Part shown: positions 18,979 to 44,300 of the stretch, in pieces
How the letters are laid out: the number at the start of each line of letters is the position of its first letter
Numbering within the stretch: the first letter of the stretch is position 1
Source: an uncultured Pelagibacteraceae bacterium
Lineage (GTDB): Bacteria; Pseudomonadota; Alphaproteobacteria; Pelagibacterales; Pelagibacteraceae
Length of the DNA stretch: 44,376 bases
Reading direction: 5' to 3'
Assembly: GCA_902590755.1 (NCBI GenBank)
Contig: CACIYA010000003.1
Location: forward strand, 1-44,376
The notes under the pieces: generated by a model
Databases searched by the model: none
What the model saw: only the letters and a program-made list of their open reading frames with translations
What the model was told of the DNA's origin: nothing
Program-made: the position numbers and the translations under genes

Positions 18979-27259
<8,281 letters not shown>

Positions 27260-32769: not shown

Positions 32770-35700
32770 CTATGCTGTCCATTTTTCAGAAAACGCTTCT
32801 GCTTGTTGTAGCACTGTTTGAATGGCCTCTAATTCAAGATTAGGTGGATATCCATATTTTTTTAAAATTCTTTTCACCGCTACACGAATTTTAGCTCGTG
32901 CCATTTCACTGTGATGCCAGTCAATTGTTGCATTAGTATGAATTGATTTAAAAAGTTCTTTTGCAATAAGTTTAAGTTTTTCATTACCCATCACTTCAAC
33001 TGCACTTTCGTTTTCTGATAACGCCTCATAAAAAGCTACTTCGTCATCTGTTAGACCACTTTTTCCTCTTTCCTCAATTTCAGATCGAATTTGTTTTGCA
33101 AGTGCAATTAACTCTTCGATAACCTGTGCTGTTGTTAAAGCATTATTATGATAACGATTAATTGATTCAGCTAACCTTTTTGAAAAAGCTTTTGTTTTAA
33201 CAACACGTGAGCTTAACTTAGACTTAATTTCACCATTGATTAGTTTTTTTAGGGCCTCAATAGCTAGATTTTTTTTCTCAATACCTTTCATTTCATTTAG
33301 AAAATCATCAGATAGAATAGATATATCTTGAGACTCAACTCCTGCTGCTTTTAAAATATCAACAATATCAGTTGAAATTACAGCATTACTAATAAGTTGC
33401 TGAACAGCAAATTCATCTTCTTTAATCTTTTTCTTTTTACCATCGCTCTTTGCCAAAGCAGCTCTTATTGCTTGGAAAAAACCAACTTCATCACGTATTT
33501 TTTTGGCATCATCACTTGATGCTGCAAGTGCGAATGCTTGACTTAGGTTTAATACAGCATCTGAATATCTTCTATGAATTTGTTTTTTTTCCTCTTCAGA
33601 TTCAGTTTTTTCTGAGGCTTTTCTTTGTGCCTCTAATATCCATTCCATAGCACCTGCAATTATTGACAAACGATCTTTTGCTTCACCTTTTAAACCAGCG
33701 ACGTAATCAAAACCAAAGAACATATCTTTAACAATTTGATATTTTTCTAACATTACGGCTACAACCTCTTCTTGGCTAATACCTGTTTCTTGTTTATCTC
33801 TATCTGAATAGTCACCCAAAGCATTCTTAAGATTTTGAGCTATACCAATGTAATCAACTATCAATCCACCGGGTTTATCTTTGAAAACTCTATTTACTCT
33901 AGCTATTGCTTGCATCAAACCATGACCTTTCATAGGTTTATCTATGTACATGGTGTGCATCGATGGAGCATCAAAACCTGTAAGCCACATATCTCTTACA
34001 AGAACTATTTTTAATTCATCATCAGCTTTCTTAGCTCGTTTAGCTAAAAGATCACGTCGTGCCTTATTGCCAATATGTTGTTGCCAATTCTTAGGATCTG
34101 AAGCAGAACCTGTCATTACAACTTTTATTTTACCTTTGTCATCATCATCACTATGCCAATCAGGTCGTATAGCAATGATAGCATCATAAAGTGCAATACA
34201 AATACGGCGGCTCATGCACACAACCATTGCCTTACCATCCATAGCTTCAACACGAGATTCGAAATGTTTAATTAAATCATCTGCAACTTTTTTTAATCTA
34301 TCTTCTGCACCAACTAGTGCTTCAACACGAGACCATCTTCCCTTCTTCTTCTCAGCTTCATCAATATCACTATCTTCGACAAGTTCTTCGATCTCTGCAT
34401 CTACTTTTGCAATTTCTTTTTCGTCTAATTCAATTCGAGCAAGTCTGCTTTCATAATAAATAGGAACTGTTGCTCCATCTTCTACACCTCGCTGGATGTC
34501 ATAAACATCAATGTAATCCCCAAATACTGCAGGTGTATTAACATCTGTTTTTTCAATTGGTGTACCAGTAAAACCAATAAAAGAAGCATTTGGAATAGCA
34601 TCACGGAGATGTTTCGCAAAACCATACGAGACTTCACCACTATCACTTGCTACTTTTGTCTTAAATCCATATTGGCTACGATGCGCTTCATCGGCTATAA
34701 CAACAACATTTCGTCTGTCTGTAAGTTTTGGGTATTCGCTTTCACCTTGATTAGGAGAAAACTTTTGAATTGTAGTAAAAATCACACCACCTGATGGAAC
34801 AGAGAGTAATTTTTTTAAATGCTCTCTATCGTTAGCTTGAACAGGAGTTTGTCTTATAAGATCTTTACAGCCAGCAAAAGTAGTAAATAACTGATCATCC
34901 AAATCATTACGATCTGTCAAGACAATTAGAGTTGGGTTTGCCATTTGTGGGTGTGAAATAATTTCACCAGCATAAAATGCCATTAATAAACTTTTACCTG
35001 ACCCTTGAGTGTGCCAAATAACTCCTACACGATTATCCCCACTTTCATCTGTCGCTTTAATTGTGCATTGAACAGCTTTATGAACAGCGTGAAATTGATG
35101 ATAACCAGCTAATTTTTTAATGATACCACTTCCGGTATTTTCAAATACAATAAAACCACGTAACAAAGATAATAGTCTTGACTTATCAAACACTCCATTA
35201 ATCAAAGTTTCTAATTCAGGAATACCTTTTGATACAATATTCTCACCATCAACAGTTCGCCATGCCATAAAACGTTCTTCATTTGCAGTAAGTGACCCAA
35301 TCCGTGCCTGCAAACCATCCGATGTAACTAGGAATCCATTTGTTCTAAACAATCCTTCAATTTCATCTTTATAAGTTTGAAGTTGGTTATAAGCATCATC
35401 TATAGTAGCGTTTTCATCAGTTGGATTTTTAAGTTCAATAACAGAAATAGGTAGACCATTAATAAATATCACCACATCCGGTCTTCGGTTTTGCCCACCT
35501 TCTATTACTGTATATTGATTAACTGCCAACCAATCATTGTTTTCAAGGTTTTCAAAATCAATTAGCTTTGCTTTATCTGTGCCAATACTGCCATCCTCAC
35601 GTTTAATATCGATATCAACACCATCAATGATTAATTGATATATTCTTCTGTTTTCTTCAACAAGAGTTGGTAATTCAGATTGATTAAGTTTTCTTAAAGC

Positions 35701-35910
35701 ATACTCACATGCATCGACACTAAGATGTGGATTGATTTTTTTAAAAGAATTTTTGAAACGATCAATAAGAATTGATACATCGTATGCTGCTCGCTCTGGA
35801 GTATCGCCATCAGGTGAAATATCAGGCCCATGTAAAATAGAATAACCAAGTTCCTCTAACCACTCTAAACAAGCTTGTTCAACATGGTCTTCTGTAAACC
35901 TGTTGCTCAT
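32770..35910 (-). CDS. hsdR: Type I restriction enzyme R subunit
   Basis: PD-(D/E)XK-like [22 protein letters not shown]; Walker [26 protein letters not shown]; helicase motif [10 protein letters not shown]. Confidence 0.97.
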
Positions 35911-37148
35911 AGAGCTGCCTCAACTTCATGTTCAGCATCTCTCAAACTGATTTCACCAGACATTAATTTTGGTAGTAAGGTGTCACGTAGTTTAGCAAGA
36001 GTTTGGTTTTCTTGTTCATTAGCGCTAATTTTTTCGTAAAAATCTCCAACAATTTTTTCAAAAGAAATTGCTTCACCATTTGCTGGTACAATTATTTTTT
36101 GACTTCTAGCATCACCTTGTGAAATAAATGGCTGTGCTGAACCTCTAATTGGCCAAAAGTTATTTCCCTTCGTAGCATGATATAAAAATATAGTTGGCGT
36201 CAGATCATATTTAGACCAGAACCTTATTGTATTTTTAATACATGACCATTTTCCTCTTGCTAGCCAGGTATTTCCACAATTAGCTCCAATTGCACTAAGT
36301 ACTATTCCTAGTTTTTCAAAATCAAAATATGGAAGCTTTCCATCTTTACCACTGGCACTGTAAGCATCAAACCCCGTCTCAACATATGATTTTTTTGTTG
36401 TTTTTAGATCTCCCCAACTTAGGTCTGAAATATCTTCAAGTTTTTTGTACTGCCATCCAACTGGTAAACCATCTTCACCAAATGAATTTGGAAATAGGTT
36501 TGAGGTTTTAATATCCATATGTGATGGTGCTTTACCAGCAACCTTTGCATGTACAGGATCAAACTCAACAAACCAACTTTTATATATGGTATAAGCCATC
36601 TCTTCCAACGTCTCATTCATTCGGTTGTTATTTTCAATTTTATCGTCTAGAGCACCTAATACAGAAGTGATGGATTTTTGCTCTGCGTAAGATGGAAGAT
36701 CAACTTTTACGTTTCCTAAGAGTGACTGGCTTAAGTTAAAAATGGCTGTTCCAGAGGCAATTCTAACAAATTTCTCTTTATACTTTGGTGAGCGCAGCAA
36801 GTAGTTCAAATAATGACAATCCACAACTGATTTGTCTTTTATGCGATATCTAATAATAAAACCGCTAAAAATCATCTTTTCTTTTACATCCCAAACCATT
36901 GCCACCTGACCAGCACCTGCCGCTTTAACAGAAGATCTTGCAAACATTATATCTCCGTTTATTAGAAACAGCTTTTCAGGTGACCTTAATACGTTTTTTT
37001 TTAATCTTTCTAAATTAAAAAGCGAAACATAGCGACCAGAGTATAATTGTTTATTATTGATAATTGGATATCCTTCACCATAATCCTCTAGTGAAAAATT
37101 TGCACCATTTTTAAATTCACCTATTTCACTTAATGTAAATTCAGTCAT
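35907..37148 (-). CDS. hsdS: Type I restriction enzyme specificity subunit
   Basis: Two target-recognition-domain halves, conserved-region helices ([66 protein letters not shown]). Confidence 0.96.
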
Positions 37149-38700
37149 TATTAAAATCAGAGATGTGCTTTAAAATTTTTTTTTTAATTTTCTCACTTTT
37201 TTTAAACTGATCAGTTAGTTTTGCTTTTAACGCATCTAACTTCTGCTTAAATGGAATACCGTCATCCAACTCATCTTCTGCACCAACATAAATACCTGGT
37301 GATAGAACATAGTTATTTGATTTGAGGTCTGACAAATTGGCAGAATGGCAGAAACCAGAAATATCTTGGTAGGCACCACGCCTTTCAATTGCATCTGACT
37401 GACCACGCCATGCATGATAGGTATCAGAAATTTTTGCTACATCTTCATTGCTGAAATCGCGTCTTACGCGGTCTACCAAAGTTCCTAATTTCCTTCCGTC
37501 AATAAATAAGATTTTACCCTTTCGATTATTCAATCCTTTTGGATTTTTGTTTTTTGTTAAAAACCATAAACAACATGGAATGGTAACACCATAAAACAAA
37601 TTTCCTGGTAAATTAACTATACAATCAACTAAATCATTTTCAATTAGGCTCTGGCGTATCTCACCATCACCTGTACTATTTGAAGACATAGAACCATTAG
37701 CAAGAACTACACCTGCAGTACCATTTGGAGCTAAGTGATGAACAATATGTTGAAGCCAAGCATAGTTAGCATTACCGACAGGAGGTACTCCATATTTCCA
37801 ACGGACATCCTCACGTAATCTGTCACCACCCCAGTCACTAACATTAAAAGGTGGATTGGCTAATATAAAGTCAGCTTTTAGATCAGGTAGCTCGTCTTTA
37901 TGGAAACTACCTTCATTATTCCACTTAATATCTGCATCAATACCACGAACAGCCATATTCATTTTTGCTAGACGCCAAGTGGTATTATTCATTTCTTGTC
38001 CATAAACACGGATATCACCAATTCTTCCACCATGTTCTCTTACAAATTTTTCGGATTGAACAAACATTCCACCTGAACCACAGCAAGGATCATATACTCG
38101 ACCTTTATAGGGTTCTAACATTTCAGTTAAAACTCTTACAATTGAACGAGGGGTAAAATATTCACCTCCACGTTTTCCTTCAGCACCAGCAAAACCACCT
38201 AAAAAATATTCATAAACACGGCCTAATATATCTTTTGATTTATCATCCTCTTCATTCATACCGATGGTACTAATAAGATCTATCAGTTCACCTAACATGG
38301 TTTTATTTAGGGCTTCTCGTGCGTAGTTTATTGGAAGCACACCTTTTAAACTTGCGTTTGATTTCTCAATTGCAAGCATGGCATCATCTACCAATTTGCC
38401 TATTGTTGGTTTTTTTGCATTATCCTGTAAATGAGACCAACGTGCTTCTTTAGGCACCCAAAAAGTTCGTTCTGCTAGATATTCATCAGCATCTTCTTCG
38501 TCTGCATCTTTGTCTGCTTTTAATTTTTCATAAACTGAAATGAAAGCATCAGAAATATATTTTAAGAAAATAAGCCCAAGTGCAACGTGTTTATACTCAC
38601 TGGCATCCATGCTGCCACGTAGCTTATCAGCAGCTAAAAATAGTTTTGCTTCAAATCCTAAATTAGCAGCTTGTTGTTTAGTAGAATTGTTTTTAACCAT
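37141..38700 (-). CDS. hsdM: Type I restriction enzyme M subunit (N6-adenine methyltransferase)
   Basis: [46 protein letters not shown]. Confidence 0.97.
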
Positions 38701-38876: not shown

Positions 38877-39647
38877 TTAATAAGTTTCTTTTCTTATTTG
38901 CTCAATTTTAATTTTTTTTTGTAAACTGTTACTCTTATCATATAGCAAATTAAATCTTATTTTATTCTGAACTTTTATTACAATCTTTTTTGCATTCCTT
39001 ATTTCCACATTATCAGCAACTGCACTAACTGGCCTTTTAATAGAATTTAAATTGATTATGGTAATTTTTGATTTATCGCTAACGACCTTACCTGTCCATC
39101 TTCTTGGTCTGAAAGCGCTGATTGGAGCAATAGAGATTTTTTTTGAATTTAAATTTAAAATTGGCCCATGTACTGATAAGTTATAAGCTGTACTACCAGC
39201 CGGTGTTGACACTAAAACTCCATCTGAGACTAATTTTTTCATGATATATTTTGAATTATTTTTAATTACCAAGTTTGCAGCTTGACGACTTTGTCTTAAA
39301 ATAGATACCTCGTTGATAGCTAAACACTTTCTACTACCATTTCTCTTTGATACAGACATTTCAAGTGGCGAGATACTTATCATTTTTGATTTTTCAAGAT
39401 TATTAATTAATAAATTTTTTGAGAATTTATTCATCAGAAAACCATAATTACCTGAATTAATTCCATAAAAAAATTTTTTACTCTTTTTATTTTTTTTCAA
39501 AGTTTGCAACATAAATCCGTCGCCGCCGATAACAATTACAACATTAGATTTTTTGACACTCTTATTTTTAAAAATTTTTAAAACTTGTTTTTTAATCTTT
39601 AAAGATTGTGAATTTTTATCAGAAATAATTAATGGTTTGTTCATCAT
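38877..39647 (-). CDS. nadK: NAD kinase (start trimmed; listed ORF start lies inside tRNA-Leu)
   Basis: VVIVIGGDGFMLQTL, YGINSGNYGFLMN, NEVSILRQ, SDGVLVSTPAGSTAYNLSVHGPIL. Confidence 0.93.
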   Translation of the reverse strand: MMNKPLIISDKNSQSLKIKKQVLKIFKNKSVKKSNVVIVIGGDGFMLQTLKKNKKSKKFFYGINSGNYGFLMNKFSKNLLINNLEKSKMISISPLEMSVSKRNGSRKCLAINEVSILRQSRQAANLVIKNNSKYIMKKLVSDGVLVSTPAGSTAYNLSVHGPILNLNSKKISIAPISAFRPRRWTGKVVSDKSKITIINLNSIKRPVSAVADNVEIRNAKKIVIKVQNKIRFNLLYDKSNSLQKKIKIEQIRKETY

Positions 39648-39651
39648 TTTG

Positions 39652-39737
39652 TGGTGCCCTCGGCCAGACTCGAACTGGCACTCCCAAAAGGGCAAGGATT
39701 TTAAGTCCTTTGTGTCTACCAATTTCACCACGAGGGC
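39652..39737 (-). tRNA. tRNA-Leu (anticodon TAA)
   Basis: Reverse complement GCCCTCGTGGTGAAATTGGTAGACACAAAGGACTTAAAATCCTTGCCCTTTTGGGAGTGCCAGTTCGAGTCTGGCCGAGGGCACCA; class II cloverleaf. Confidence 0.95.
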
Positions 39738-39753
39738 AATCTATCATTTGTTG

Positions 39754-40857
39754 TTACTGTATCTTAAAGATTTTTTCAAGATCATCCTTGGCTATTTCGA
39801 TAGGATTATTTTTTAATCTTTGACTATTAATGCCAGAAAAGAATTTTTCTTTGTCTGAAATCAAATTTATATTTAGTTTTTTGTGGTCTTGTTCTAAACC
39901 TAGGTCTTGTTTTAATTTGATAAAGTAACTATTTAAACCTTCAATATTATTAGTTTTTGTTAAGTTAAACAGAATTTCGTATTTCAACTTAAGATCAGTT
40001 GGATTTTTAGATCTATTCATATTCAGAAAATTAAAATTTAATATTTCATTAAATGTTAATGAAACAGCATGTCCATGTGGAATACCGTATAGTGTTGTAA
40101 ATGGATAAGATAAAGCATGTGGGGCAATTGTTTTTGAAATATTAATTGCTTTACCAGAAAAGTTAGCTCCGATTAACATTTTATAAGAATTTTGGATGCT
40201 TTTGTTTTTAAAATAATCTTTAAAATTTCCAAATAAAATTTCTAATCCTTTTTTAGCAAACATAATACTTTCATCATTTGAGTTTATTGAAAATAGTGAC
40301 TCTACAGATTGACTTATTGCATCAAAGCAAGCAGTGGCGTCTAAATAAAAATTAGATGATAATATTAGTTCTGGTTTAAGAAAAAAATAGTCTGGCCTTA
40401 CACTTGGACCTTCAACCGAGTATTTTATTTTATTCAAATAAATTACTGCATTTGACGTTACTTCCGCACCAGATCCAGCAGTTGTTGGAATAGCTAAGAC
40501 TTTTATTTTATTTTCAATAAAGTTTGAATTAATAACATCTTCCTTAATATTTTTGGAATTAGTTATCACAGAGCTTATTTTGGCTAAATCCATAACACAC
40601 CCTCCGCCAATGGCTATTATTAAATCTGGTCTAAAATTACCTACTGTTTCAATAATTTTTTCTAATTCATCAATCTCGGGTAATTTCTTTTTTTTAAGGA
40701 ATATTTTAAACTCATTTTTTTTTAAATATTCTTTAAAGATTTTTTTTGCACCAGTTTTATTAAATGAATTCTCTCCAGATAATAATAAAATTTTTTTTAG
40801 GGGTTTTTCACTAATAAATTTCTTTATATCTTCATCAGATTTAAATTCTTTAGACAT
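39754..40857 (-). CDS. Fe-ADH-family dehydrogenase, phosphonoacetaldehyde reductase-like
   Basis: IIAIGGGCVMDLAK, IPTTAGSGAEVTSNAVIY, APHALSYPFTTLYGIPHGHAVSL; follows a Ppd-like gene. Confidence 0.8.
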   Translation of the reverse strand: MSKEFKSDEDIKKFISEKPLKKILLLSGENSFNKTGAKKIFKEYLKKNEFKIFLKKKKLPEIDELEKIIETVGNFRPDLIIAIGGGCVMDLAKISSVITNSKNIKEDVINSNFIENKIKVLAIPTTAGSGAEVTSNAVIYLNKIKYSVEGPSVRPDYFFLKPELILSSNFYLDATACFDAISQSVESLFSINSNDESIMFAKKGLEILFGNFKDYFKNKSIQNSYKMLIGANFSGKAINISKTIAPHALSYPFTTLYGIPHGHAVSLTFNEILNFNFLNMNRSKNPTDLKLKYEILFNLTKTNNIEGLNSYFIKLKQDLGLEQDHKKLNINLISDKEKFFSGINSQRLKNNPIEIAKDDLEKIFKIQ

Positions 40858-41299
40858 TTTTGATTTTCTTTTTTAATAGTGATGAAGATATTTTTTTTGT
40901 GTAAGGTAAATCAATTACTTTTCCATTCCAAAGCTTCATTGTTTGAATTAATTTTTTTCTACTTAAGGCTTGTGGGCCTTTTTTCCAATCATCTCCATGA
41001 ACCACATATTCAAATTTATATTTTTTTGCAATTTTTGAAAAAAATTTTGGACCTTGAATAGGTAAAATATAACTAATATCCTTTAACATTGAAGCAATTT
41101 TTTTTCTTTCATTAAATGAAGAGGTTGGAAATTTTTTTTTATAAGACTTTATGCCTTTGTCAGAGACTAAGCCTAAAATTATGTTTCCATATTTTTTAGA
41201 TTTTCTCAATATGTTAACATGTCCATGATGGAGAAAGTCTAAACACATAGGAACAAATACATATGGTCTCTTTACTTTAAAATAATTTTTTTTCTTCAT
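40850..41299 (-). CDS. HxGH nucleotidyltransferase (cytidylyltransferase-like)
   Basis: VFVPMCLDFLHHGHVNILRKSKKYG (HxGH) and C-terminal YTKKISSSLLKKKI resembling the RTxGISTT signature. Confidence 0.83.
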   Translation of the reverse strand: MKKKNYFKVKRPYVFVPMCLDFLHHGHVNILRKSKKYGNIILGLVSDKGIKSYKKKFPTSSFNERKKIASMLKDISYILPIQGPKFFSKIAKKYKFEYVVHGDDWKKGPQALSRKKLIQTMKLWNGKVIDLPYTKKISSSLLKKKIKNV

Positions 41300-41302
41300 A
41301 AA

Positions 41303-42412
41303 TTAGAAACTATTAACAAAATTTTTCTTTATCTTAATTAAATTTTTGGGTCTTGATAAATCTTTCATTGAACCCATTTTTATTCTTACCTCTAGTAATG
41401 ATGGACCTGGTTTTTTTAAAAAAATTTTTAATTTATTTTTAATTTCTCGCTTCTTTTTTAATAAAAAATAATACTTATAACCCACTGATTTAATCAATTT
41501 TTCGATATTTACTTTATCAATATTTGTAGATTGCCCTCCAACAGATTCATGTGAAAAATTATTAAAAAGTAAGTGTTTAAAGTTTTTCCTACTTTTTTTT
41601 CCAATACTTACAATTGAACCTAAGTGCATTAAAAATGAACCATCGCCATCAAGACAAATTACATCATGCTTTGTTTTAGTGGAAACACCTAATGAAAGCA
41701 CTGAACTATGACCCATCCCACCTACCATATAAAAATCATTTCCTTTATTACTTTTTTTTTTTGCCCTAATCTGGTTTAACTCTCTTGAGGTAAAGCCTGT
41801 AGTAGCAATTAATTTAGTATTCTTTTTTATAATTTTTAATAATATTTCTATTACATCACATCTTTGAATTTTATTAGAAATACTTATTTTTTTTTGAAAT
41901 TTAGAATTATTATTAATAAGAATATTTCTTTTCAATAATATTGCTACTGGAACACTATTAATTTTTGAAAATTTAATTAATTTTTTTAATTTTTTTAAAT
42001 CTTTATCATTATTCAAAATAACATATTTGATATTTAGTAATTTTAAAATACTCTTAGTTATTTTACCTTTAACATTATGTTGTGGCTCATCTTTAATTCC
42101 AGGAGCTCCTCTCCAACCAATAATCATTAACATTGGTATTGAATAAACTTTTTTATGACTAATTGAAATTAAAGGGTTAATTGCATTCCCTAGACCAGAA
42201 TTTTGCATGTACACACAAGGAATTTTTTTAGTTGCTAAATAATAACCAATAGCCATAGCAATTGATGATCCTTCATTTGTAGTTATAAAATGTTTTTCTT
42301 TTTTTGACTCTAAAAAGGAGGAAGCTGTTTTTAAAACACTATCAGGTACTCCAGTAAAAAAATCAATTTTTTCTTTTTTTAAAAATTTAAATAATTTTTT
42401 AGTTTCAATCAT
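41303..42412 (-). CDS. Phosphonopyruvate decarboxylase-like TPP enzyme (start trimmed to MIETKK)
   Basis: FFTGVPDSVLK, TTNEGSSIAMAIGYYLATKKIPCVYMQNSGLGNAINPL, GWRGAPGIKDEPQHNVKGKIT, C-terminal TPP-binding CLDGDGSFLMHLGS. Confidence 0.88.
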   Translation of the reverse strand: MIETKKLFKFLKKEKIDFFTGVPDSVLKTASSFLESKKEKHFITTNEGSSIAMAIGYYLATKKIPCVYMQNSGLGNAINPLISISHKKVYSIPMLMIIGWRGAPGIKDEPQHNVKGKITKSILKLLNIKYVILNNDKDLKKLKKLIKFSKINSVPVAILLKRNILINNNSKFQKKISISNKIQRCDVIEILLKIIKKNTKLIATTGFTSRELNQIRAKKKSNKGNDFYMVGGMGHSSVLSLGVSTKTKHDVICLDGDGSFLMHLGSIVSIGKKSRKNFKHLLFNNFSHESVGGQSTNIDKVNIEKLIKSVGYKYYFLLKKKREIKNKLKIFLKKPGPSLLEVRIKMGSMKDLSRPKNLIKIKKNFVNSF

Positions 42413-43247
42413 TTTTAAAAATATATCCTTTGTTTGAGACGTAATAAAAACTTGCCGCAAAAATAATTAAATTTTTTATTAAAATTAAAAAATATAAATA
42501 TTTTAAAAAATCAGAAGAATAAAAAAAAGTGTCAATTAAAATTAACAAACAAACAAAATCTACAGACCTTGATCTTTCATCTAAAAAACCTTGAATAAAA
42601 ATTTTAGCTTTTTGAACTAGAGATTTTTTCCTAGAATTTGTCTTTTTTAAATGAATTTCAAAATTTAATTTTTTAAGAACATTTTTTTTATTTTTTTCTT
42701 TAAACAAAGCATGCATTGCTAATAAATAACCATAATTTCTTATATCCAAAGCTTTCAGAAAAAGAATAAAAACACCTGTAACCAAAAAAATTATTTCACT
42801 ATCTTTGTTATAAATGTAAATACTTAATCCTAATAAATAAGAGTATGAACTTATTAATGATGCCCAGTTATCTAACAAAAAACCTAGATTTGAAGTTTTA
42901 TTTTTAATTCTTGCTAGTAAACCATCTGACCAATCTAAAACACCTTTAGTAAATAATATTATGATTGATGTCAGAATTAAAATTTCATTGTTACTTGATA
43001 AAAGAAACAAAACACTAAAACTTAAAACAATATAAATTGAAGTAATAAAATTAGGAGAAATTTTTGAAAATTGTAAAAAAAAAACTAAAAATGATGAAAC
43101 TTCAATGTAGTATCTAGACTTAAAAAAAGTATACGGATTACTAAAAAAATTATTAATATCAGTTCCTAATGACCCCAATTTCTTTATTTGCTCTTTATAA
43201 TGAATTTTTCTTATTTTTCTTAAAGAAAATTTAGTATCCATTTTCAA
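42405..43247 (-). CDS. CDP-alcohol phosphatidyltransferase-family membrane protein, last Asp of motif substituted
   Basis: DWSDGLLARIKNKTSNLGFLLDNWAS matches Dx2DGx2ARx8Gx3Dx3(D) with Ser at the last position; multiple hydrophobic segments. Confidence 0.78.
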   Translation of the reverse strand: MKMDTKFSLRKIRKIHYKEQIKKLGSLGTDINNFFSNPYTFFKSRYYIEVSSFLVFFLQFSKISPNFITSIYIVLSFSVLFLLSSNNEILILTSIIILFTKGVLDWSDGLLARIKNKTSNLGFLLDNWASLISSYSYLLGLSIYIYNKDSEIIFLVTGVFILFLKALDIRNYGYLLAMHALFKEKNKKNVLKKLNFEIHLKKTNSRKKSLVQKAKIFIQGFLDERSRSVDFVCLLILIDTFFYSSDFLKYLYFLILIKNLIIFAASFYYVSNKGYIFKND

Positions 43248-43340: not shown

Positions 43341-44300
43341 ATGAAAAATATACTAATATATAACTCTGGGGGTGGATTAGGTGACTCAATCCAATTAATT
43401 CCATTAATTTTAAGCCTTCAAAATTTTTTTAAGGACACATCATTTTATTATTTAGGCGCTCATGCAAATCATTTTGATAATGAGCTTAAGGAATTCAATA
43501 TAAAGTTAAAAACTTTAAAATTAGATATAAAGTATTTTGGTTTCAGGTGGTGGCATCTTTTAAATGTTAAAAAAAATTTTTTAAATGCTAATTATGAAAA
43601 GTTTAATTTAATTATAGATTTACAATCAAAATTTCGTAATTCTTTAATTTTAAAAAAAATTCCGCACGAACATTTTTATTCACTAACATTTAACAACATC
43701 TTTAGTTCAAAAAAAATTAAATATGCTAGTAAAAACCATTTAGAAAATCTAAGTTTATTTTTAAATGAAAAAATTAATAAAATAGAATTTACAGAAAATA
43801 AATTACCGGATGTGCTTCGATCAGAAGCTAAAAGGTTATTGCCTGAAAATAATTATATAGGGCTTTCTATTACACAAGGAAATGAATATAGACCTAAAAG
43901 TTGGTCTATTTCAAAATTTATTGAATTAGCTAATAAAATTTCTTCAAAAGGTAAAATCCCAGTTTTTTTTGTCAAAAAAAATGACATTAATGTTGTAAAG
44001 ATGATTCAAGAAAATGTTCCAAATGCCATTTTTCCAGAACATAAATCAAGTAACCCATGCCCAGCATTAGTTACAGCTTTATCAAAAAGATGTGAGCTAG
44101 GAATTACCATAGACAATGGCATAATGCATATGATGAGTTTAGCTAAGATACCTCTGATAATTTTATTTGGACCAACCGATTCAAAGAAGTTTGCTCCTAA
44201 TTATCAAGATGTAAAAATTTTAGACTCCAAAAAAATGTACGATACTCAAAGTCTAGAAAGAATTACTGTTGATGACGTTTTAAAATGTCTTAATTTTTAA
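43341..44300 (+). CDS. GT9 (heptosyltransferase-like) glycosyltransferase
   Basis: GGGLGDSIQLIPLILSL at N-terminus; C-terminal LGITIDNGIMHMMSLAKIPLIILFGPTDSKKFAP. Confidence 0.82.
   Translation: MKNILIYNSGGGLGDSIQLIPLILSLQNFFKDTSFYYLGAHANHFDNELKEFNIKLKTLKLDIKYFGFRWWHLLNVKKNFLNANYEKFNLIIDLQSKFRNSLILKKIPHEHFYSLTFNNIFSSKKIKYASKNHLENLSLFLNEKINKIEFTENKLPDVLRSEAKRLLPENNYIGLSITQGNEYRPKSWSISKFIELANKISSKGKIPVFFVKKNDINVVKMIQENVPNAIFPEHKSSNPCPALVTALSKRCELGITIDNGIMHMMSLAKIPLIILFGPTDSKKFAPNYQDVKILDSKKMYDTQSLERITVDDVLKCLNF

What the first reader, a model, noticed from the sequence alone, without database searches (positions are those of the whole stretch)
39754..43247. Putative operon to build a CMP-activated phosphonate and attach it to an alcohol acceptor
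Seen directly: four same-strand genes with 8-bp overlaps at two junctions: CDP-alcohol phosphatidyltransferase-like, Ppd-like TPP enzyme, HxGH cytidylyltransferase, Fe-ADH. Established knowledge: in fosfomycin biosynthesis phosphonopyruvate is decarboxylated (Fom2), reduced to 2-hydroxyethylphosphonate by an Fe-ADH (FomC), and cytidylylated by the Fom1 cytidylyltransferase domain. CDP-alcohol transferases move a phospho-group from a CMP donor to an alcohol. Inference: a phosphonate head group is activated here and grafted onto lipid or glycan.
Basis: partly seen in the sequence, partly recalled or inferred. Interest (0 to 1): 0.7.

Follow-up and report, generated by a model that had tools for sequence, protein, structure and literature searches.

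The report
SAR11 phosphonate-activating gene cassette lacking pepM
A marine SAR11-type bacterium carries a compact four-gene cassette that looks built to turn phosphonopyruvate into an activated carbon-phosphorus head group and attach it to a surface molecule, but the gene for the first step, which makes the carbon-phosphorus bond, is not beside it, and the presumed attaching enzyme belongs to a group that has lost its textbook catalytic residue.

Summary
In detail: four intact minus-strand genes with 8-bp overlaps at two junctions (39754-43247). The chemistry is largely supported. The TPP enzyme passes the curated phosphonopyruvate-decarboxylase cut-off and groups with pepM-linked homologues. 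The stand-alone cytidylyltransferase is closest to the solved PEP-mutase-labelled cytidylyltransferase domain (Fom1). The same four genes, in the same order, occur in two same-genus genomes, followed directly by a cytidylyltransferase-PepM fusion gene. In the window, pepM is missing from that spot. The four genes are the entire insert between tRNA-Leu and a conserved flanking glycosyltransferase gene, and no pepM is found in the 66%-complete genome. All 26 other genomes of the genus with this decarboxylase show PepM or a fragment of its fusion gene, so pepM most likely lies in the missing third. The CDP-alcohol transferase belongs to a phosphonate-cluster-linked subfamily in which the fourth signature aspartate (the catalytic base) is always Ser/Gly/Ala, while this genome's ordinary CDP-alcohol transferase keeps it. 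So the last step, transfer to an acceptor, is the least secure and the most interesting. Best reading: a 2-hydroxyethylphosphonate activation-and-transfer module, a new variant of known phosphonate-tailoring clusters. Lipid versus glycan acceptor is undecided.

The parts
42405..43247 (-). CDP-alcohol phosphotransferase-like membrane protein (280 aa from TTG; 278 aa from ATG 43241); proposed phosphonyl transferase; belongs to the D4-less subfamily
   Evidence: PF01066 43.9 bits, cut-off 22; motif DWSDGLLARIKNKTSNLGFLLDNWAS with Ser at D4; AF2 model matches CDP-alcohol phosphotransferases
41303..42412 (-). Phosphonopyruvate decarboxylase (Ppd/AepY), 369 aa
   Evidence: TIGR03297 376.9 bits, cut-off 312.5; tree with pepM-linked Ppds
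40850..41299 (-). Stand-alone Fom1-type cytidylyltransferase, 149 aa, HHGH motif; proposed CTP:2-hydroxyethylphosphonate cytidylyltransferase
   Evidence: best solved relative 5x3d, E 1.2e-29; 61-65% identical orthologues only in G231 and G201 within the genus
39754..40857 (-). Iron-containing alcohol dehydrogenase, 367 aa; proposed phosphonoacetaldehyde reductase
   Evidence: PF00465 103.2 bits; adjacent to Ppd in most relatives' clusters; metal-ligand His replaced by Gln across the subfamily
39652..39737 (-). tRNA-Leu(UAA), left flank of the insert (the Fe-ADH gene ends 16 bp away)
   Evidence: conserved next to NAD kinase in relatives
38877..39647 (-). NAD kinase, conserved flank
   Evidence: PRK04761 299 bits, cut-off 211; synteny
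43341..44300 (+). Glycosyltransferase family 9 gene, conserved right flank and not part of the cassette
   Evidence: PF01075; 65% identical gene beyond tRNA-Leu in L103, L104 and L109

Best explanation
The four genes form a mobile, translationally coupled phosphonate-tailoring module. Phosphonopyruvate is decarboxylated by Ppd to phosphonoacetaldehyde, reduced by the Fe-ADH to 2-hydroxyethylphosphonate (HEP), activated by the stand-alone Fom1-type cytidylyltransferase to CMP-HEP, and transferred by the CDP-alcohol-transferase-like membrane protein to a hydroxyl of a surface molecule, more likely a polyol or sugar than diacylglycerol. Phosphonopyruvate comes from a PepM encoded elsewhere, most likely in the unassembled third of this genome. 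Shown here: gene identities by profile, conserved cassette order, pepM adjacency in relatives, clean insertion between tRNA-Leu and the GT9 gene. Inferred: every catalytic step, HEP as the head group, the transfer step and its acceptor, and the existence of pepM in this cell.
For: Ppd above its curated cut-off and in a supported set with G201, G231 and G122 homologues. Cytidylyltransferase best match 5x3d (106 bits, against 50 for ethanolamine-phosphate and about 31-33 for glycerol-3-phosphate cytidylyltransferases), with HxGH, VHGDDW and ISS(S/T) motifs kept. Same cassette followed by a CYT-PepM fusion with the EDKxxxxxNS motif in L058 and L059, then LicD, epimerase and nucleotidyltransferase genes. 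Usual family arrangement is CYT-PepM, Ppd, Fe-ADH. Within the genus 27 of 169 genomes have Ppd; all 26 others show PepM or a piece of its fusion gene. D4-less CDP-alcohol transferases concentrate in genomes with Ppd or PepM: at least 13 of 15 outside the window against a Ppd base rate of 20/146. Frames intact; second codon positions change less than third. HEP and methylphosphonate esters of polysaccharide are known in marine dissolved matter (PMC9381506).
Against: No PepM in the window, in the insert, or anywhere in the 711-kb assembly, and no LicD. The insert ends cleanly in conserved flanks on both sides, so pepM cannot simply be the next gene. The transferase lacks D4, and D4-to-Asn nearly abolishes activity in a mycobacterial homologue (PMC4634129). 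The Fe-ADH fails the TIGR03405 cut-off and has Gln for one metal ligand. G231 and G201 also carry LicD and a second, PepM-fused cytidylyltransferase, which could be the actual transfer and activation route there.
Confidence: 0.6

Rival explanations
1. The cassette is a true orphan: pepM is absent from the cell, and the genes are either decaying after transfer or fed by a scavenged phosphonate that yields phosphonopyruvate or phosphonoacetaldehyde.
For: No PepM, PEP-mutase-fold protein or LicD found in the available genome; the insert holds only the four genes between conserved flanks.
Against: Genome only 65.7% complete; the 302-aa PEP-mutase-fold paralogue seen in most relatives is missing here too, consistent with plain incompleteness. 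All four frames intact and constrained. All 26 other genus genomes with Ppd show PepM or a piece of its fusion gene.
Confidence: 0.17
2. The first three enzymes make CMP-HEP, but the D4-less CDP-alcohol transferase is not the phosphonyl transferase: it binds CDP-type ligands or has another role, and a LicD-type protein encoded elsewhere does the transfer.
For: D4 replaced by Ser/Gly/Ala in all members while D4 is catalytic in studied enzymes; LicD genes lie next to PepM or near the CDP-alcohol transferase in L057, L058, L059, L060 and L063.
Against: No LicD in this genome as assembled; the rest of the nucleotide-binding signature, D1, D2, G, A, D3 and PNxxT, is kept, with an added invariant Asp (D230) and a nearly invariant Arg (R225) in the C-terminal half; tight coupling to Ppd in three genomes.
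Confidence: 0.2
3. The module activates a different head group: 2-aminoethylphosphonate, or a sulfonate (sulfopyruvate decarboxylase plus sulfoacetaldehyde reductase).
For: Ppd, ComDE and SarD-type Fe-ADH families are related; the window proteins score weakly on sulfopyruvate and sulfoacetaldehyde models.
Against: No aminotransferase in the cassette. Phosphonopyruvate model 377 bits against 94-106 for the sulfopyruvate subunits; SarD 68 bits against a cut-off of 700. PepM adjoins the cassette in relatives. A sulfonate could not be cytidylylated and transferred in the same way.
Confidence: 0.05

Closest known systems
Fosfomycin early pathway of Streptomyces wedmorensis (Fom1 CyTase-PepM fusion, Fom2 decarboxylase, FomC Fe-ADH)
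   Same: Same inferred order of reactions through HEP to CMP-HEP; cytidylyltransferase closest to 5x3d; Ppd and Fe-ADH present.
   Different: Cytidylyltransferase is a separate 149-aa protein; no PepM in the locus; Fe-ADH below the TIGR03405 cut-off; no fosfomycin tailoring genes; ends in a membrane CDP-alcohol-type transferase.
Pnt phosphonyl-tailoring clusters (Rice et al. 2019, PMC6697681)
   Same: Cytidylyl activation of a phosphonate for surface tailoring; PF01467 or PF12804 nucleotidyltransferases with Ppm.
   Different: The PntCs characterised there prefer AEP and are LicC/MobA-like; here a Fom1-like PF01467 protein, no AEP transaminase, and the nucleotidyltransferase separated from Ppm.
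SAR11 and Prochlorococcus phosphonate clusters (PMC8931226, PMC9381506)
   Same: pepM, ppd (aepY) and phpC-like Fe-ADH occur together in Pelagibacterales, in glycan-building regions.
   Different: The window places ppd, ADH, CYT and CDP-alcohol transferase at a separate tRNA-Leu site without pepM or glycan genes. The passages of these papers read here do not mention CDP-alcohol transferases or stand-alone cytidylyltransferases.
Predicted phosphonolipid clusters with a CDP-alcohol phosphatidyltransferase (lichen Nostoc PMC5987646; Pantoea pgb PMC9933511)
   Same: A CDP-alcohol phosphatidyltransferase beside phosphonate genes, proposed terminal transfer.
   Different: Those use AEP-type genes (transaminase, NTP transferase); whether their transferases keep D4 was not tested.

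Membership tests
Phosphonopyruvate decarboxylase (TIGR03297) | Score above the curated equivalog cut-off | tested here: met
   376.9 bits, cut-off 312.5
Phosphonopyruvate decarboxylase (TIGR03297) | Groups with Ppds encoded beside pepM rather than other TPP decarboxylases | tested here: met
   Within Pelagibacteraceae Ppds, in a supported set (97/87) with G201, G231 and G122 homologues; no non-Ppd outgroup in that tree, but other TPP models score far lower
Fom1-type HEP cytidylyltransferase | HxGH and ISSxx nucleotidyltransferase motifs, closest to the Fom1 CyTase domain | tested here: met
   HHGH; best solved relative 5x3d at E 1.2e-29; alignment. That 5x3d is the Fom1 CyTase domain is from memory; the tool names it phosphoenolpyruvate phosphomutase, 160 aa
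Fom1-type HEP cytidylyltransferase | Fused to PepM | tested here: not met
   149-aa separate gene; fused forms are usual in relatives
Fom1-type HEP cytidylyltransferase | Converts HEP and CTP to CMP-HEP | not testable with these tools
   Needs an enzyme assay
Phosphonate Fe-ADH (TIGR03405) | Score above cut-off | tested here: not met
   104.1 bits, cut-off 423.7
Iron-containing alcohol dehydrogenase (PF00465) | Family score and the four metal ligands D, H, H, H | tested here: inconclusive
   PF00465 103.2 bits; D, H, H kept, the second ligand is Gln in all phosphonate-linked relatives aligned
CDP-alcohol phosphotransferase | PF01066 score and overall fold | tested here: met
   43.9 bits, cut-off 22; the 27 best structure matches are CDP-alcohol phosphotransferases or related synthases, though E is only 2e-3
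CDP-alcohol phosphotransferase | Signature D1xxD2GxxAR...GxxxD3 and P(D/N)xx(T/S) | tested here: met
   DWSDGLLAR, GFLLD, PNFIT; motif definition PMC4634129
CDP-alcohol phosphotransferase | D4, the catalytic base | tested here: not met
   Ser130 here; Ser/Gly/Ala in every other subfamily member; Asp in this genome's own second CDP-alcohol transferase (L130) and in L023, L119, L120 proteins
Phosphonate biosynthetic gene cluster | pepM present | tested here: inconclusive
   Absent from the locus and from the 65.7%-complete assembly; present beside the same cassette in G231 and G201

The most novel reading that the evidence does not exclude
A subfamily of CDP-alcohol phosphotransferases that has dispensed with the catalytic aspartate D4 is the unidentified phosphonyl transferase of many SAR11 phosphonate clusters, using CMP-2-hydroxyethylphosphonate as donor and a different base (candidate: the invariant Asp230 near Arg225), and it travels with its activating enzymes as a four-gene module separable from pepM.
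Probability: 0.35. Interest if true: 0.65.

Novelty: new variant of a known kind. Interest (0 to 1): 0.47.

Why it matters
SAR11 has been estimated to make a large share of ocean phosphonate (PMC8931226), a methane and phosphorus source, yet how the phosphonate is joined to macromolecules is unknown. This cassette isolates four genes covering decarboxylation to transfer, with a small separate cytidylyltransferase and one candidate transferase, which makes the attachment step testable in a laboratory host. It also shows that pepM alone may miss or misplace producers, because the tailoring genes can sit at a different site.

Tried and rejected
Viral contigs hold no relative of the CDP-alcohol transferase; phage records hold only two distant Ppd-like matches from faecal samples; plasmid records hold none of the transferase and only distant cytidylyltransferases, one annotated as part of a PEP mutase: nothing suggests phage or plasmid carriage. 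Considered and rejected: the GT9 gene as part of the cassette (it is a conserved flank); an amplification chimera as the cause of the missing pepM (both flanks belong to one conserved site, empty in L103, so two matching false joins would be needed); sulfonate chemistry (scores); the Tyr in place of a second Fe-ADH histidine as a special trait (solved relatives have Tyr there too). The contig end at 44376 was compared with cinA, which follows GT9 in relatives: only weakly supported (11 of 1000 shuffles as good for one relative, not supported for the other).

Full report
Observation. The four genes are present as described: minus strand, CDP-alcohol transferase (42405-43247), Ppd (41303-42412), cytidylyltransferase (40850-41299), Fe-ADH (39754-40857), with 8-bp overlaps at the first and last junctions and a 3-bp gap between Ppd and cytidylyltransferase. 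All frames are intact.

Gene identities. Ppd scores 376.9 bits on the phosphonopyruvate decarboxylase model (cut-off 312.5), against 94-106 bits for the sulfopyruvate decarboxylase subunits. In a tree of 31 Ppds from the family it sits in a supported set of four with homologues from G201, G231 and G122; that tree has no non-Ppd outgroup. The cytidylyltransferase matches PDB 5x3d (PEP phosphomutase, 160 aa; from memory the Fom1 CyTase domain) at E 1.2e-29, well ahead of ethanolamine-phosphate and glycerol-3-phosphate cytidylyltransferases. The Fe-ADH is a clear PF00465 member but falls short of the curated phosphonate Fe-ADH model. It and all phosphonate-linked relatives aligned have Gln where solved relatives have the His after the Asp ligand.

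Genome context. No PEP-mutase-fold protein is found in it by two family models or by a CYT-PepM fusion query, nor LicD. The window's contig ends at 44376.

Comparison with relatives. In the sampled family, 20 of 146 genomes have Ppd and the 19 others all have PepM, typically a 430-445-aa CYT-PepM fusion next to Ppd, with Fe-ADH following. Two genomes of the same genus, G231 (L058) and G201 (L059), carry the window's own arrangement, CDP-alcohol transferase, Ppd, stand-alone cytidylyltransferase (64% and 61% identical), Fe-ADH, then directly a CYT-PepM fusion with the EDKxxxxxNS motif, LicD, an epimerase and a nucleotidyltransferase. In the genus, 27 of 169 genomes have Ppd. For the 26 others, PepM was found by the family model in 4 and as a long, mostly fused frame in 20; in G255 the fusion gene runs off a contig end and in G355 only its C-terminal tail is readable beside Ppd. 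The window's genome is the only one with none.

The insertion site. In L103 (G088) the GT9 gene is directly followed by tRNA-Leu and NAD kinase, and in L104 and L109 GT9 lies beyond tRNA-Leu in the same orientation (65% identity). The window has the same flanks, so the insert consists of exactly the four genes. pepM is therefore not the next gene lost at a contig edge; it is elsewhere in this genome or absent. Given the missing third of the genome and the rule in relatives, elsewhere is more likely. In G365 pepM and ppd are about 18 kb apart, so separation does occur.

The transferase. The CDP-alcohol phosphotransferase signature ends in two aspartates, D3 and D4; D4 is the presumed catalytic base and D-to-N nearly abolishes activity (PMC4634129; PMC6506517). 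In the window protein D4 is Ser130, and every other subfamily member has Gly, Ser or Ala there, including one SUP05 protein, whereas this genome's other CDP-alcohol transferase and three unrelated ones keep Asp. The remaining signature and the PNxxT motif are kept, and the subfamily has an invariant Asp230 and a nearly invariant Arg225. The AF2 model (mean pLDDT 76) finds CDP-alcohol phosphotransferases first (E 2e-3). Of 15 other genomes with this subfamily, at least 13 carry Ppd or PepM; at the family rate of Ppd (20/146) chance gives p about 5e-10, uncorrected for kinship. PMC4634129 links six transmembrane helices to soluble acceptors and extra helices to lipid acceptors; the 280-aa length and helix pattern here favour a sugar or polyol acceptor, an inference only.

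Mechanism and limits. The best reading is decarboxylation, reduction to HEP, cytidylylation, and transfer of HEP to a surface hydroxyl. The first three steps follow from family membership; the transfer is inferred from coupling and co-occurrence and is weakened by the missing D4. Second codon positions change less than third in all four genes, so the genes have been under constraint.

Known context. Nucleotidyl activation in phosphonate clusters and Ppm-PF01467 fusions are published (PMC6697681); pepM, aepY and phpC together in Pelagibacterales are published (PMC9381506); phosphonate genes amid glycan genes in SAR11 are published (PMC8931226); CDP-alcohol transferases beside phosphonate genes are published for Nostoc and Pantoea. 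No paper found in the searches made here describes a D4-less subfamily or a pepM-free module, but the paper library is partial. Filed as a new variant of a known kind.

Noticed in passing
window 32770-38700 (-): A type I restriction-modification set (hsdR, hsdS, hsdM) with GC 35% against about 26% for its neighbours, between tRNA-Thr and NAD kinase; absent at that place in L103 and L104.
   Followed up: partly
window 18979-23165 (-): rpoC is split over three open frames (18979-21072, 21137-21934, 21906-23165), which suggests indel errors in the assembly or a real disruption.
   Followed up: no
L113 7935-8810: A D4-less CDP-alcohol transferase (38% identical) in a SUP05-cluster genome with no Ppd or PepM in the 15 kb seen, so the subfamily may also work outside phosphonate clusters.
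   Followed up: partly
L023 9045-9431, L024 7394-7792, L063 5540-5935, L068 7245-7616, L062 11954-12370: A second type of small separate cytidylyltransferase (123-138 aa) near Ppd, PepM or D4-less transferases, missing the VHGDDW segment of the Fom1 type; its substrate may differ.
   Followed up: no
L058 2276-2953, L059 2526-3203: LicD-family gene directly next to the CYT-PepM fusion in both genomes that share the cassette, suggesting a second transfer route.
   Followed up: partly
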